Source: Bowmanella denitrificans (lineage in GTDB: Bacteria; Pseudomonadota; Gammaproteobacteria; Enterobacterales; Alteromonadaceae). From it: a stretch of DNA of 64,000 nt. The notes beneath the pieces were generated by a model that was not told the origin of the DNA, made no database searches, and saw nothing but the letters and a program-made list of their open reading frames with translations. The translations under genes were made by a program, and so were the position numbers. The stretch is taken from contig NZ_PEBU01000007.1 in assembly GCF_002887595.1 (NCBI RefSeq), forward strand, positions 62,001-126,000. Direction: 5' to 3'. How positions within the stretch are numbered: the stretch's first letter is position 1; every line of letters starts with the position of its first letter. This document shows, in pieces, positions 45,801-55,865 of the stretch.

Positions 45801-45857
45801 TGGTGCAACAGCTTGGTTTCTAAGTCGTATCAACAGCAGTAAGTCAGAAGGTTGAGC

Positions 45858-46820
45858 ATGCAACAGTTTCAGGAGTTTTACCGCCGCATTGCCGGTACAT
45901 CACACAGTCACTGGCTGGAAGTGCTGCCCGCCCAACTGGCAGACTGGCAAGGGCAAAACAAAGCCGACCTGGACAAATGGCAAAAACTGCTGGCAAAACT
46001 CCCTGCCACCTCCCCTGCAGACGTAGACTTGCTCAGTCAGGTACGTATTGGCAGTGCGGCGGATATCAATGACTACACCCAGAAACAGATAATTGGCTTG
46101 TTGCAGCAATTCAAACCCTGGCGCAAAGGCCCCTTTCACCTGCATGGTATTCACCTGGATACCGAGTGGCGCTCTGACTGGAAATGGGATCGCGTGTTAC
46201 CGCATCTAAGCCCCCTTGCCGGTCGAAGTGTGCTGGATGTGGGCTGTGGCAGTGGCTATCACCTGTGGCGTATGCGCGGTCAGGGTGCTGAGTTGGTGGT
46301 GGGGGTGGACCCCTACCCGTTGTTTCTGATGCAGTTTCTGATCATGCAGCACTTTATTCAGGATCAGCAGGTCTTCCAGTTACCCCTGGGTATCGAAGCC
46401 TTACCGGCCCTTAACAGTTTTGATACGGTTTTTTCCATGGGCGTACTTTATCACCGTAAAAGCCCGCTGGATTTTTTGCAGCAGCTTAAGAGTCTGCTCA
46501 GAAAAGGCGGTGAGCTGGTGCTGGAAACCCTGGTAGTAGAGGGTGACGAGCACCAGGTTTTTCTGCCCGGCGAGCGCTATGCGCAAATGCGTAATGTCTG
46601 GTTTATTCCCAGCGTAAAGGCGCTGGAAAGCTGGTTGCAACGCCTGGGTTTTAAACATATTCGCACCGTGGATGTGTCCACCACCAGCGTCGATGAACAG
46701 CGCAGTACCCAGTGGATGACCACCCATTCACTCAAAGACTTTCTCGACCCTGAAGATCCCAGCAAGACCATTGAAGGCTACCCCGCACCGGTGCGCGCTG
46801 TCACTATTGCCACAGCCTAG
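45858..46820 (+). CDS. cmoB: tRNA U34 carboxymethyltransferase CmoB
   Basis: CmoB transfers the carboxymethyl group from carboxy-SAM to 5-hydroxyuridine 34 of tRNA. The 320-residue protein contains [27 protein letters not shown], the SAM motif [13 protein letters not shown], and [18 protein letters not shown] 45858 lies 7 nt from an AGAAGG site; an in-frame TTG at 45852 is less likely. It is paired with cmoA. Confidence 0.96.
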
Positions 46821-52266: not shown

Positions 52267-52345
52267 AGCTAAGAATTTGATTTTAAATGGTTACCTGGGT
52301 CAGACTTGAACCGGCACGGCGTTACCGCCGAGGGATTTTAAATCC
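52267..52345 (-). repeat. 3' remnant of a tRNA-Leu gene with its 3' flank (island boundary)
   Basis: This segment repeats 55610-55688. A block of 43 bp (52303-52345) is identical to the intact tRNA-Leu from the anticodon stem to the T arm. The acceptor part has five changes, and 13 bp just beyond the CCA end (GATTTTAAATGGT) match again, with AGCTAAG also shared at equal spacing. The 5' third of the tRNA is absent, so it cannot be functional. Confidence 0.85.
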
Positions 52346-52482
52346 TGCCAAAGTAACAATAAAAACAGTAACTTACTGTCTCATAAAGAAGTTTAACGAA
52401 CATAAGACCACCAGCTATATTAGCGTGGTTACAATGTGGCTATCTATTCCACTTATTTACATGTGATTATTAGACGTACTTT

Positions 52483-54165
52483 CTATCTGAATTTAATATT
52501 TAGCTCTTTACTAATTTTAGAGTCCAAATGGGATGATTTTAACTCCGCATTCAAGTCTTTCTCATCACTGACAACGTTTAGCAGAATATCAAATGATTTT
52601 CTAGTAAAGTCGTCAAAGTTAACCATTCCATCTTGTATCTTTGAAATTTCACTGTCCATTTTATTAGTATCTATCCATGAATCAGATCCTCTAAATAAAA
52701 ATGAGGCTATTCTAGATATATGAAATGAGGCATTTTTAGCAATGTAACGGCGCTTTTCATTTGAATCCTTTACGTACGATTCATGCTTCAGTGAATCTTT
52801 CACATTGGAATAAATCAACGAAGACAGTACAAACGGCTGTACAATATCACCAGTGAATATTTTATCATAGAACTCACTCCAGACTTTATACTTGCGGCTT
52901 CTTGCATCACTGCATCTTTTAAGTACAACTGCTAGGTATGAAGTCGCGGCTATGTCATTTGATATCACGCTTGCCTTTTGAATGCCTTCAATACTATCAT
53001 ACTGCCTTGGCTTTCTTTCATAGTACAAATTATAGAATTCAAAGCCTCTTTCAATGTCAACTTGAACCAAATCATTTGACCTTAGATTTCGGCCTGATAT
53101 TTTATTTTGATTATTTGTAGTTAAAACTATGCGATCAACAAGATCAATGTCTTCTGTCTGATATATCCTTACAATAACCCTTGCATCTTTCTGTAGCTCT
53201 CCATTGGTACCTGCTCTAGCCAAAGAAGATGCTGTCTGACAGCCATTCACAATTTGCATATTTGTAAGTTTCACATGGGGATCATCGGGGTCAGTAACTG
53301 GGTCGACTTTATCACAAACTATCGTAATTCCATTGTTTAAAAACCAAAAAAGATAGCTAGTTTCCGCATTTGAACATGTAGACAATATTTCTGGATTAAC
53401 GCTACCTCTATTGCCTAGATATTTTCTTATATTTAGATCAAATACATAGCCATTTACATCTTCATTAACTATCCTAGAAATTTCGGTAGCCGGAACAGAA
53501 CATACAATACCTGTCAAACCTTGCGTTTGATATTTTATCAATGATGGTGCGTTAGCATCGTATCTCATCTTAATATCAGCGCTAATTTTCTTATTCTTTT
53601 TTTCAAGTGCGTTAATGCGATCGACTATTTCCTCTGCACTCCAATACTCAAATTTAAATGAAGCAAAGACTTCATTATCATATTCATCCGTTATGCTTTT
53701 TTCTTCTTCAATACATTCATTGGAAATGACTTTTCTTGGTGCATTTGTTATATAGGCCACTTTAACATGGATATTTGATGGACCTATTGAAGACTGCAAA
53801 GCTCTATAACTCAATATTTGATCTTTAAGATTTGTATTTGATAATGCAGAAATATCCGCTCTAGATTTATTAAAAACCCATTGCAACCCATTTCTTAGCT
53901 GAACAAGTATATTTGAAGAAAATGATTGTGTATTTTTAACTTGTAAGATATAAACGTAAGCTTCATCGTTTTCATCAAAAATTGAAATTACATCTATTTG
54001 TTTATCTTGACCACCATCAACCAATTCTCGCTCTTCAAATGAATGAAGACTTTGGTCTGTTACCAGAGAATGAGCCAGTCTTGTAAAAGCAGCATCCTCC
54101 TCAATTTCCAAATGAATTGCAGTTTTCTCAATATTACTCTGAACTATTTGCTGCCTAATATTCAT
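52483..54165 (-). CDS. AIPR-family (abortive infection phage resistance) protein with nuclease-like N-terminus
   Basis: A 560-residue protein with two visible parts. The N-terminus (about 1-130) has a PD-(D/E)xK-like pattern with GGQDKQID at Asp58 and ILQVK at Gln75/Lys77, a Q-for-E variant. The middle (about 240-400) carries the AIPR signature: YLFWFLNNGITIVCD, MQIVNGCQTASSLA and TTNNQNKISGRNLRSND. The gene is strikingly AT-rich relative to its neighbours, a sign of transfer. ATG 54165 is taken; GTG 54174 is in frame. It lies in the tRNA-Leu-bounded island and is presumably an antiphage gene, inferred from the family. Confidence 0.85.
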   Translation of the reverse strand: MNIRQQIVQSNIEKTAIHLEIEEDAAFTRLAHSLVTDQSLHSFEERELVDGGQDKQIDVISIFDENDEAYVYILQVKNTQSFSSNILVQLRNGLQWVFNKSRADISALSNTNLKDQILSYRALQSSIGPSNIHVKVAYITNAPRKVISNECIEEEKSITDEYDNEVFASFKFEYWSAEEIVDRINALEKKNKKISADIKMRYDANAPSLIKYQTQGLTGIVCSVPATEISRIVNEDVNGYVFDLNIRKYLGNRGSVNPEILSTCSNAETSYLFWFLNNGITIVCDKVDPVTDPDDPHVKLTNMQIVNGCQTASSLARAGTNGELQKDARVIVRIYQTEDIDLVDRIVLTTNNQNKISGRNLRSNDLVQVDIERGFEFYNLYYERKPRQYDSIEGIQKASVISNDIAATSYLAVVLKRCSDARSRKYKVWSEFYDKIFTGDIVQPFVLSSLIYSNVKDSLKHESYVKDSNEKRRYIAKNASFHISRIASFLFRGSDSWIDTNKMDSEISKIQDGMVNFDDFTRKSFDILLNVVSDEKDLNAELKSSHLDSKISKELNIKFR

Positions 54166-54327
54166 CCCATTCACTCAACATGAAATTGCAAATAAAATAT
54201 CAACATCTACATAAAACTGATTACATCTTGCTTTGATACATATAGTTATATTTAACTTGAACTCTACCTAATCCAGTTTAAATGTAATTTATATATGCTC
54301 GCTGTCATGAATTTGCAAGGAGCAACG

Positions 54328-54507
54328 ATGTATCAAAACAGAACCTTTTGCTTTACCAACAGTGACTTGATTCGATACTTCCATATCAAAGATAACCTAA
54401 GGGGTTATCAGCAGCTATGCGCTTTGGATGTGTGGGAACGGGAAATGCGAAAACGCCTGACGGCCATTACGCCGAACCTTTCTGTTGCTTCTCTGCGTCC
54501 AACTTAG
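54328..54507 (+). CDS. Unknown 59-residue protein in the island
   Basis: A short frame starting MYQNRTFCFTNSDLIRYFHI, rich in aromatic and charged residues, ending in VASLRPT. ATG 54328 has a strong AAGGAG site 6 nt upstream, which is the main support; a longer in-frame start is at 54295. I do not recognise it. It could be a small defence or antitoxin-like protein, or a truncated gene. It lies divergent from the AIPR gene. Confidence 0.5.
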   Translation: MYQNRTFCFTNSDLIRYFHIKDNLRGYQQLCALDVWEREMRKRLTAITPNLSVASLRPT

Positions 54508-54927
54508 CGCCCTGCCCTTCTAATTCTCGAATCTGAAAATGCGTCTGGGTATAAAGTGTCTGATCAAGGGCTTTCCTGACACTTATATTGTTAATTCCGC
54601 TTATCTGTGCGCATGTTTAATCTGACCAGGTCGCCAGGTGAACTTGCCGCTCACATCTTTACAAAAATCTAGCAGATGGTTTGGCTGATTGATACCTAAA
54701 TTTCCCTATTACTTCAGACCGTTAGGTTATCTGTTTGGCTCAGCGGTGCCGCAGTGGCCTTAATGTCCCTGATGCTTCCGCTGGTCAAATATGCATAACA
54801 CTAAACCACCAGATTGACCGCTATGGATATCTGCTTGGCATCCGGCGTCGCTGCGCTTTTCAATTGGTCATTCAGTACGTCGATGCTATATTCTTTAATA
54901 GCCAATTTGAATACAGCAGAGGTGACT
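54508..54927. other. Gene debris between the small island gene and parD
   Basis: About 420 bp without an intact gene, but with short coding-looking runs in several frames. On the minus strand there is one ending in a stop near 54503 (with IRELEGQGAKLDAEKQQ), and in another frame one around 54620-54700 (HLLDFCKDVSGKFTWRPGQ). On the plus strand there is a hydrophobic run near 54700-54797 (VWLSGAAVALMSLMLPLV). They suggest decayed genes; I cannot identify the parents. Confidence 0.35.
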
Positions 54928-55182
54928 ATGGCCAATACCAGCCTGACTCTTGGTGAACACTGGGAAGGCTTTATCAAAGCAGAAATAACCAGTGGCCGTT
55001 ATGGTACCGCCAGCGAAGTAGTGCGCGACGCTTTGCGTACCCTGGAAGAGAAGAAAATTAAGCTTGCTGCGCTGCGAGTTCATTTGGATGAAGGCGCTGT
55101 ACAGGCACAACGTGGCGAGTTTGTTAATCAATCTGAACAGGAGATGCTTAGCGAGTTTAAAGCACAGCGCAATGGCAAATAG
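54928..55182 (+). CDS. parD: Type II antitoxin, ParD/CopG-Arc family
   Basis: An 84-residue protein starting MANTSLTLGEHWEGFIK with the ParD fold. A ribbon-helix-helix N-terminus (SLTLGEHW, then IKAEITSGRYGTASEVVRDALRTLEEKK) binds operator DNA, and a C-terminal helix neutralises the toxin. ATG 54928 follows AGAGGTGA. It overlaps parE by 11 bp, in the usual antitoxin-toxin order. ParD typically represses its own operon. Confidence 0.92.
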   Translation: MANTSLTLGEHWEGFIKAEITSGRYGTASEVVRDALRTLEEKKIKLAALRVHLDEGAVQAQRGEFVNQSEQEMLSEFKAQRNGK

Positions 55183-55483
55183 CTTTCAAATTACCCCCAG
55201 AGCAAAAGGTGATTTATACGATGCCTGGCTTTATACCCTTGAAACCTGGGGGGAGCATCAGGCCGATACTTATATACAAGCCTTATTCTCACGCTTTGCC
55301 TGGCTGGCTGAACAACCTTCGGCAGGTCGACACAGAACAGATATTGCGAAAGGATACTATTGTTTCGCTCAAGGCCAGCATCTGGTGTTTTATCAGATTC
55401 TGCAAACCGATATCGCCATTATCGGCGTACCGCATCAATCAATGGATATAGAACATTACTTTGATAGGCCATTAGGGTTATAG
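55172..55483 (+). CDS. parE: Type II toxin, RelE/ParE family
   Basis: A 103-residue toxin with the RelE/ParE fold: ITPRAKGDLYDAWLYTLETWGEHQADTYIQALFSRFAWLAEQPSAGRHR and HLVFYQILQTDIAIIGVPHQSMDIEHYF. ParE toxins poison DNA gyrase; the branch here cannot be proved. ATG 55172 is inside the parD stop region. The pair sits beside the tRNA-Leu and stabilises the island, a common role. Confidence 0.92.
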   Translation: MANSFQITPRAKGDLYDAWLYTLETWGEHQADTYIQALFSRFAWLAEQPSAGRHRTDIAKGYYCFAQGQHLVFYQILQTDIAIIGVPHQSMDIEHYFDRPLGL

Positions 55484-55630
55484 GATAACTATCAGGCTAA
55501 ATTGTCTTTCGTTGCAGCCTCACCTTGGCAAACAGCATAATTTTTTTGAGTGTAGCCAAAATGCAGTCAAATGAGGATAACTGAAGACAGAATTCAGATT
55601 AAGAGATGCAGCTAAGTGCAAGATTTTAAA

Positions 55631-55717
55631 TGGTGCCCGGGGCCGGACTTGAACCGGCACGGCGTTACCGCCGAGGGATTTTAAATCCCTTGTGTCTACC
55701 AATTTCACCACCCGGGC
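55631..55717 (-). tRNA. tRNA-Leu (TAA)
   Basis: Read on the minus strand it is an 87-nt tRNA starting GCCCGGGTGGTGAAATTGGT. The anticodon loop is TTTAAAA (anticodon TAA), the long variable arm is CGGCGGTAACGCCG, the T loop is TTCAAGT and CCA is encoded. It is the last tRNA of the Gly-Cys-Leu cluster. Fragments of a second tRNA-Leu gene lie on both sides of it. Confidence 0.96.
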
Positions 55718-55834
55718 ATCGGGGGATATGTAGCTGTTATTGCTGCTACCAGCATTCTTAACTGCCTTTGGGCAGTTTCCTTGTGGTCGCTACCGGCTTC
55801 CCGCCTCTCGCGACACTTGTACTTCCTGCACATC

Positions 55835-55865
55835 GTCTACCTGTTTCACCACCCGGGCATCGGGG
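55835..55865 (-). repeat. 5' remnant of a tRNA-Leu gene
   Basis: Thirty-one bp matching 55694-55724 with two mismatches, 141 bp away. It includes the tRNA 5' end through about position 24 and 7 bp of the upstream flank (ATCGGGG in minus-strand complement). No continuation of the tRNA follows, so it is non-functional. With the 3' remnant at 52267-52345 it would nearly make one complete gene. The 110 bp between it and the intact tRNA hold only a short AACTGCC/GGCAGTT hairpin. Confidence 0.8.

What the first reader, a model, noticed from the sequence alone, without database searches (positions are those of the whole stretch)
52267..55865. A small defence island inserted in, and split by, a tRNA-Leu gene
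Three tRNA-Leu pieces are seen: a 3' two-thirds remnant with flank (52267-52345), an intact gene (55631-55717) and a 5' third remnant with flank (55835-55865). The two remnants together would nearly restore one gene; they stop at about tRNA positions 24 and 30. This suggests an insertion into tRNA-Leu, about 3.5 kb long, that carries its own intact tRNA-Leu copy. Inside are an AT-rich AIPR protein gene, an unknown 59-residue gene, debris and ParDE. No integrase is visible, so the element is decayed, mobilised in trans, or lost its recombinase. tRNA-targeted islands with antiphage genes are known; this precise split is inferred.
Basis: partly seen in the sequence, partly recalled or inferred. 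Interest (0 to 1): 0.75.

Follow-up and report, generated by a model that had tools for sequence, protein, structure and literature searches.

The report
Two tRNA scars, one defence insert
A leucine tRNA gene carries two scars of different age: a small block with an anti-phage-type gene behind it, and an older gene-doubling hairpin unit in front of it that turns up at the same spot in other bacteria.

Summary
The three tRNA-Leu pieces are real, but they are not one split gene. The intact tRNA-Leu(UAA) (55631-55717) and the 3' fragment (52267-52345) fit the classic tRNA-island signature: a 79-nt repeat starting at tRNA nt 30, in the anticodon stem, encloses 3.3 kb with an AbiU/AIPR gene (34% GC) and parDE, and no detectable recombinase. 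AbiU is patchy: 3 of 196 family genomes. Same-genus relatives have one intact gene and no insert in the stretches read.

The 5' fragment (55835-55865) is older. Three of four same-genus relatives without the insert keep it, so the two remnants do not restore one gene. It heads a roughly 140-nt unit: tRNA nt 1-24, a 56-nt two-hairpin element with covarying stems and mostly GGA loops, a third hairpin, then the intact gene. I examined this element upstream of tRNA-Leu(UAA) or (CAA) at 18 sites, with GTAGAC directly before it at 14, and found one more at a tRNA-Arg.

The same hairpin family lies in or beside type I restriction-modification genes, and class-wide in many other genes. The islet is an ordinary new member of a known kind. 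The tRNA-seated hairpin unit is the less expected part.

The parts
55631..55717 (-). Intact tRNA-Leu(UAA), last gene of the pgsA - tRNA-Gly - tRNA-Cys - tRNA-Leu cluster; its 3' part (from about nt 30) would be supplied by the islet (inferred)
55610..55688 (-). Direct repeat copy at the intact gene (attL-like): tRNA nt 30-87 plus 21 nt of 3' flank
52267..52345 (-). Displaced 3' tRNA-Leu fragment (attR-like), 69 of 79 nt identical to 55610-55688
52346..55609 (.). Islet body, about 3.3 kb; GC 38% for 52346-55630 (window 50%)
   Evidence: no homology in same-genus stretches read
52483..54174 (-). AbiU-type AIPR protein, 563 aa, GC 34%; invariant D61...Q78-x-K80 near the N terminus
   Evidence: PADLOC AbiU 2.4e-76 over residues 8-559, Pfam AIPR 1.4e-40, alignment A2
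54928..55182 (+). ParD antitoxin, 84 aa
   Evidence: Pfam ParD_antitoxin on the longer ORF, TIGR02606
55172..55483 (+). ParE toxin, 103 aa, overlapping parD by 11 nt
   Evidence: Pfam ParE_toxin on the longer ORF, PHROGs; no NCBIfam match
54175..54927 (.). Unassigned stretch with short ORFs; no family match above a curated cut-off, no other copy in the genome
55835..55865 (-). Truncated 5' tRNA-Leu piece: 7 nt of flank plus tRNA nt 1-24; not part of the islet
   Evidence: kept in relatives without the islet
55779..55834 (-). Hairpin element B: two hairpins with GGA in their loops, starting directly after tRNA nt 24
55760..55777 (-). Third hairpin of the unit (AACTGCC CAAA GGCAGTT)
   Evidence: sequence, fold
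52287..52466 (+). 59-aa ORF antisense to the tRNA fragment; probably not a gene

Best explanation
The locus carries two independent scars at one tRNA-Leu(UAA). (1) Older, upstream: the tRNA-Leu 5' end was duplicated, and a hairpin element sits directly after nt 24 of the spare copy; one full gene was kept downstream. Relatives share this arrangement. (2) Younger, downstream: a 3.3-kb islet with abiU and parDE entered at the anticodon stem-loop of the intact gene, most likely by a tyrosine integrase acting in trans or since lost. The incoming DNA carried tRNA nt ~30 to the 3' end plus ~21 nt, so the gene was restored and its old 3' end was displaced 3.3 kb downstream. AbiU would act as a phage-triggered effector, probably a nuclease; ParDE would stabilise the block. 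Shown: the repeats, the gene content, the insert's absence and the 5' piece's presence in relatives. Inferred: the integrase, the molecular steps, and AbiU and ParDE function.
For: 79-nt repeat beginning inside the anticodon stem and running through the 3' end, the layout most common in Islander (PMC4383910, abstract and passages: of 3919 islands 3760 have a 3' fragment and 2083 an anticodon-centred site). Relatives G001, G002, G003, G004: one tRNA-Leu(UAA) in the stretch read and no abiU; no other 3' piece within 8.0, 8.0, 1.6 and 0.2 kb downstream, nor in 11 more distant 7.9-8.0 kb stretches (best scores 11-28, against 91 for the window's own fragment and 109-124 for full copies). AbiU is patchy (3 of 196 family genomes, the other two at 27-28% identity); the closest relatives that a pattern-based scan returned are in Flavobacterium (57-58%). 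GC is 34% in abiU against 50% in the window. The 5' piece with element B is present in G001, G002 and (shortened) G004, absent in G003.
Against: No recombinase or recombinase debris was found. The exact empty-site junction is not shown: beyond the first 22 nt after the tRNA neither the intact gene's flank nor the fragment's flank aligns with G001 or G002 better than shuffles (p 0.20-0.40), whereas G001 and G002 do align with each other, and downstream genes differ between species. Gly/Cys/Leu tRNA arrays with extra full tRNA-Leu(UAA) copies occur in 6 of 28 loci read, so a decayed tandem copy could also leave a 3' fragment.
Confidence: 0.72

Rival explanations
1. Tandem decay: the cluster once held two or more tRNA-Leu copies; one lost its 3' part (with hairpins), another lost its 5' part, and abiU-parDE was inserted between copies by some other route.
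For: Full extra tRNA-Leu(UAA) copies exist in 6 of 28 family or order loci; the 5' piece itself looks like a decayed tandem copy; the downstream fragment's flank (21 nt) is duplicated too.
Against: The 3' fragment starts in the anticodon stem, a standard integrase subsite. No same-genus relative shows an extra 3' piece in the stretches read. A patchy AT-rich gene lies between the repeats.
Confidence: 0.2
2. One reading: one insertion split one tRNA-Leu into the 5' and 3' remnants and brought its own intact copy.
For: The remnants end at nt 24 and start at nt 30, so they are nearly complementary.
Against: The 5' piece with the same hairpins is present in three relatives that lack the insert, and equivalent units sit at tRNA-Leu(CAA) and in other genera. 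An island with a regenerated target leaves one displaced fragment.
Confidence: 0.03
3. For the 5' unit: a passive REP-like repeat that landed in a dead tandem tRNA copy and was then inherited, with no targeting and no function.
For: The repeat superfamily is widespread and multi-copy in the class, lies in many genes, and short palindromic repeats inside genes are described (PMC3733652, passages).
Against: GTAGAC directly precedes the element at 14 of 18 tRNA-Leu sites, for two isoacceptors, in eight genera of three families; a tRNA-Arg unit outside the order has the same layout and spacing.
Confidence: 0.45

Closest known systems
Genomic islands in tRNA genes (Islander, PMC4383910)
   Same: Regenerated tRNA plus displaced 3' fragment at the ends, anticodon-loop subsite, length above 2 kb
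   Different: No integrase found; only 3.3 kb; Islander's integrase filter would reject it
AbiU / AIPR abortive-infection proteins (PADLOC AbiU, Pfam PF10592)
   Same: Full-length match to AbiU (residues 8-559 of 563)
   Different: PMC3506569 (passages) describes an N-terminal HEPN domain in AIPR proteins; here the N-terminal part shows invariant D61...Q78-x-K80, and the second PDB match of the whole model is HamA (8vxy, probability 0.93, E 0.08, TM 0.14 by query; aligned region not given), weak hints of a PD-(D/E)xK-type nuclease
ParDE type II toxin-antitoxin
   Same: Both families matched, overlapping ORFs
   Different: Nothing notable
Short palindromic repeats inside genes (REPs; Rickettsia palindromic elements)
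   Same: Short palindromic, intragenic, open reading frame kept in protein genes (PMC3733652 passages; Rickettsia elements partly recalled)
   Different: Two or three hairpins, mostly GGA loops; seated at a fixed place in truncated tRNA copies next to an intact gene; several type I restriction-modification genes among its sites
E. coli glyW-cysT-leuZ operon and its 3'ETS-leuZ RNA (PMC7154689 passages)
   Same: Same tRNA order Gly-Cys-Leu; that operon is the precursor of 3'ETS-leuZ, co-purified with the sRNA RyhB (its sponge role is recalled)
   Different: Here the extra RNA would lie between Cys and Leu; no function shown

Membership tests
tRNA-integrated genomic island (Islander criteria) | Full tRNA gene plus a fragment of it at the other end of the insert | tested here: met
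tRNA-integrated genomic island (Islander criteria) | Fragment is an end fragment, crossover at anticodon loop or T-loop/acceptor junction | tested here: met
   Repeat starts at nt 30 and runs to the 3' end
tRNA-integrated genomic island (Islander criteria) | Integrase gene inside or overlapping | tested here: not met
   Family scans of the ORFs, including nine short frames, found none
tRNA-integrated genomic island (Islander criteria) | Empty site in relatives (my added test) | tested here: inconclusive
   Relatives have one intact gene and no insert in the stretches read, but flanks diverge after ~22 nt
AbiU | Full-length profile match | tested here: met
AbiU | Anti-phage activity | not testable with these tools
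   needs phage challenge
ParDE | ParD and ParE domains in adjacent overlapping ORFs | tested here: met
REP / CGTC- or GTAG-tagged palindromic repeats | Unpaired GTAG or CGTC tag at one end, one stem-loop of given size | tested here: inconclusive
   Element B mostly starts GAYG (CGTC on the other strand in part of the copies) but has two hairpins; compared by eye with PMC3733652 passages
REP / CGTC- or GTAG-tagged palindromic repeats | Linked transposase (for GTAG elements) | not tested
   no search made

The most novel reading that the evidence does not exclude
The 5' pieces are made by a mobile hairpin unit that enters tRNA genes at a fixed point in the D-arm (after nt 24 of tRNA-Leu, after nt 21 of a tRNA-Arg) and duplicates the tRNA 5' end so that the gene stays intact. 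The same hairpin family spreads with open frame through protein genes, type I restriction-modification genes among them. In the tRNA precursor the GGA-loop hairpins could bind a CsrA/RsmA protein and act as a decoy.
Probability: 0.25. Interest if true: 0.72.

Novelty: new variant of a known kind. Interest (0 to 1): 0.42.

Why it matters
For the islet: it is a minimal case of defence-type genes parked at a tRNA without a recombinase of their own, which integrase-based island finders would miss. For the 5' unit: a selfish or regulatory hairpin that repeatedly sits at the same nucleotide of different tRNA genes while the gene survives would be an unusual way for short repeats to live beside essential genes. 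It would also put structured RNA into a tRNA precursor whose E. coli counterpart yields a known spacer RNA.

Tried and rejected
Tried without result: the islet DNA against plasmids and element B against plasmids, phages and, as one exact pattern, viral contigs gave no match. tRNA scans of 15 AbiU loci (some short) found no tRNA-Leu beside abiU; one had a tRNA-Cys. A profile search of AbiU against solved structures gave no match; Foldseek gave nothing at E<=0.001. Flank alignments could not decide which flank of the islet is native. Synteny was only partial: the gene at 45852-46820 lies 5 kb from the single tRNA-Leu in G009 but on a different contig from pgsA in G001-G004, G026 and G034.

Considered and rejected: element B as confined to tRNA-Leu and type I RM genes. 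In 17 chosen genomes all 21 matches at E<1e-6 were of those two kinds (12 at tRNA-Leu; 9 from 5 RM loci), but the 394-genome order search and the 369-genome class search show it in intergenic sites and many other genes. The CsrA idea rests only on the GGA-loop hairpins and is kept as speculation: the published SELEX consensus RUACARGGAUGU, with ACA and GGA fully conserved (PMC7652899 passages), is not matched in full by the element's loops, and two copies lack GGA in one loop (G001 second loop; G409 first loop).

Results against the covariation reading: one of five measures, further pair types, is reached by 146 of 500 shuffles; the structure was drawn by me from these same sequences, which favours it.

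Rows dropped: 9 of 15 AbiU loci entered alignment A2. In one search, L061 was skipped (no tRNA-Leu(UAA) in 8.9 kb); L037 and L040 were flagged there as relics but hold full extra copies, and L056 scored below the cut although its short 5' piece is visible. So 4 of those 28 loci have truncated 5' pieces (L054, L055, L056, L060). Of 27 matches, 6 weak ones (E 0.006-0.04) were left out of the context count; three were read and lie in neither context, and none of the six has a tRNA near it. In one search the repeat in G026 was measured on the piece before a second element, and in G112 and G002 C1 the 5' piece is decayed (12 of 13 and 19 of 23 nt identical). G645's second tandem unit was not counted.

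Literature: 10 of 10 searches used, listings only unless passages are named. None listed a hairpin unit in truncated tRNA copies, but the library holds open papers only.
Full report
What is there. The window lies in a 5.48-Mb, 39-contig genome (G000:C7:62001-126000). On the minus strand run pgsA, tRNA-Gly, tRNA-Cys, a truncated 5' tRNA-Leu piece, and the intact tRNA-Leu(UAA). Behind these lie parD and parE (plus strand), an unassigned stretch, abiU (minus strand) and the 3' tRNA-Leu fragment (pgsA is named by recall). Scores of 127 and 59 against the intact gene with flank compare with a maximum of 44 in up to 400 random stretches of the window.

The downstream scar. The 79-nt repeat begins at tRNA nt 30 in the anticodon stem and includes 21 nt of 3' flank. 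A regenerated gene with a displaced fragment is the published signature of tRNA islands; in Islander, of 3919 candidate islands, 3760 have a 3' fragment, 159 a 5' fragment, and 2083 an anticodon-centred site (PMC4383910, abstract and passages read). Between the repeats lie 3.3 kb at 38% GC against 50% in the window, with abiU at 34% and parDE at 47%. AbiU matches the PADLOC AbiU profile over residues 8-559 at 2.4e-76 and Pfam AIPR at 1.4e-40. It occurs in 3 of 196 family genomes at E<=1e-20, this one included, the other two at 27-28% identity. A pattern-based scan of GTDB species contigs returned 15 loci at 45-58% identity, the best in two Flavobacterium species. No ORF scanned matches an integrase.

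Relatives. I fetched 16 loci downstream of pgsA. Fifteen of the 16 have an intact tRNA-Leu(UAA); L061 has none in 8.9 kb. In the same genus, G002 and G001 align with the window from pgsA to 55610 at 86% and 81% and then stop. None of the 16 loci has a homologue of abiU, parD or parE at E<=1e-8. G001 and G002 hold no second 3' piece in their next 8 kb; G003 could be read for only 1.6 kb and G004 for 0.2 kb, where their contigs end. The best 3'-piece scores in the same-genus and 11 longer loci are 11-28, against 91 for the window's own fragment. This supports absence of the islet, but the junction itself cannot be reconstructed: flanks diverge after about 22 nt and the downstream genes differ. 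A decayed tandem copy remains possible, since 6 of 28 loci carry full extra tRNA-Leu(UAA) copies.

The upstream scar is older. G001, G002 and G004 carry the 5' piece (only about 10 nt of tRNA in G004) and its hairpins in front of their intact gene although they lack the islet; G003 does not. The 5' piece is therefore not the other half of the gene split by the islet. The hairpin stretch is 94% identical to G002 and 85% to G001 over about 81 nt.

Anatomy of the upstream unit. Directly after tRNA nt 24 comes a 56-nt element of two hairpins, then a third hairpin, then a short spacer and the intact gene. In 15 aligned copies, 93.9% of cells in the 12 proposed pairs are paired and 6 pairs show changes on both sides. 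For four of five measures 0 of 500 shuffles reach the observed value; for the fifth (further pair types) 146 of 500 do. Relatedness inflates such tests, and I drew the structure from these sequences. AGGA of the first loop is invariant in the 15 aligned copies, but the unaligned G409 copy has AGCA there, and G001 lacks GGA in its second loop. Of eleven units folded alone, nine form the first two hairpins; the own copy lacks the first and G119 both in the minimum-energy fold, and G409 has no third hairpin directly behind.

Recurrence. Eighteen tRNA-Leu-linked copies were examined, from eight genera in three families. GTAGAC stands directly before the element in 14 of 18. Of the 17 with an intact tRNA-Leu in reach, the repeat ends at nt 22-27 in 15; the exceptions are G004 (nt 10) and G512 (decayed). 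Both UAA and CAA genes are hit. From element start to the intact gene is 101-129 nt in 12 of 17 and 195-286 nt in 5. The duplicated stretch starts inside the gene in two decayed cases (G002 C1, G112) and otherwise 1 to at least 87 nt upstream of it. In G119 it is 54 of 54 identical, and G645 has two tandem units, so some are recent. Outside the order, G772 has the same layout at a tRNA-Arg: a 5' piece ending at nt 21, the element, a hairpin, and the intact gene 115 nt on.

Where else the element goes. In 17 chosen genomes the covariance model gave 27 matches at E<=0.05. All 21 with E<1e-6 were at tRNA-Leu (12) or in or beside type I restriction-modification genes (9 matches at 5 loci). Pfam confirms hsdM in the own genome, G108, G111, G421 and G408, hsdR in G001, and an hsdM/hsdS junction in G093; G573 has it inside an ORF next to hsdM that reads as hsdS by eye. 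G108 holds four tandem copies with a 51-nt period in one open frame. These genomes were mostly picked because of earlier hits, so the figure is biased. In the order search 32 of 394 genomes have a match at E<=1e-4 and the weaker ones are often intergenic. In the class search 68 of 369 have one at E<=1e-5, with a capped match list. Of 29 class loci read, three lie in type I RM genes by Pfam (L187, L199, L200), a fourth (L207) resembles L200 by eye but has no Pfam match at 1e-10, and others lie in reading frames of dnaG, topA, metE, murD and a UvrD-type helicase. The element is thus a branch of a broad hairpin repeat family, not a tRNA-only one.

How the islet probably works. Inferred: a tyrosine integrase joined an attP carrying the tRNA-Leu 3' part to the anticodon loop, restoring the gene. 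AbiU would sense infection and cut nucleic acid. In 10 of 10 aligned AbiU proteins D61, Q78 and K80 are invariant. The AlphaFold model has mean pLDDT 80 but pTM 0.41, and its second PDB match is HamA of the Hachiman system (E 0.08, probability 0.93; the first match is an unrelated-looking ORC complex at probability 0.12; none reaches E 0.001). This is weak support for a PD-(D/E)xK-type nuclease (motif recalled) and disagrees with a published statement that AIPR proteins have an N-terminal HEPN domain (PMC3506569, passages).

How the upstream unit may work. The safest reading is a repeat settled in a spare tRNA copy. Bolder: a targeted hairpin unit, possibly a CsrA decoy in the tRNA precursor. 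GGA in a hairpin loop is typical of CsrA sites (PMC7652899 passages), though the full consensus is not matched, and the E. coli glyW-cysT-leuZ precursor yields the 3'ETS-leuZ RNA (PMC7154689 passages). I had no expression data.

Verdict. The islet is a small, integrase-less member of a known kind. The split-gene reading fails for the 5' piece. The tRNA-seated hairpin unit is a recurrent variant of short palindromic repeats that I did not find described, within the limits of ten searches of an open-access library.

Noticed in passing
L011:652-725 (own contig C1, about 222151-222224), L060:1023-1096, L100:1366-1438: A second palindromic element (CAAATTTG..AACAAATTTGAACAG..GTGACGAATA) sits inside the D-loop of truncated tRNA-Leu copies at the same position in three genomes.
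   Followed up: partly
L005/L012, L104, L105, L126, L133, L147, L152, L180, L187, L199, L200: Element B lies in or beside hsdM, hsdS or hsdR genes with the frame kept open, with four tandem copies in one hsdM.
   Followed up: partly
L214:1476-1692: A 5' tRNA-Arg piece plus element B precedes an intact tRNA-Arg(UCG) in a genome outside the order.
   Followed up: partly
L108 (G002, tRNA-Leu(CAA) locus): A 5' tRNA-Leu(CAA) half cut in the anticodon loop lies upstream of the intact gene, and a stretch matching the 3' half from the anticodon loop lies roughly 110 nt downstream (by eye); L103 has the same 5' half with a similar spacer.
   Followed up: no
window 55622-55631 and 55677-55686 (also 52279-52288 and 52334-52343): The 3' end and flank of tRNA-Leu repeat the anticodon-loop word ATTTAAAATC right after CC of CCA, also in G001 and G002.
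   Followed up: no
L058 and L067, between tRNA-Gly and tRNA-Cys: What look like decayed tRNA-Gly 3' pieces mixed with palindromes (by eye).
   Followed up: no
L061 (G006): tRNA-Leu(UAA) is missing within 8.9 kb and an integrase-like reading frame starts soon after tRNA-Cys (by eye, no profile search), suggesting an island at this locus.
   Followed up: no
L034, L036, L037, L040, L042, L043: The Gly-Cys-Leu cluster is expanded to two to four tRNA-Leu(UAA) copies.
   Followed up: partly
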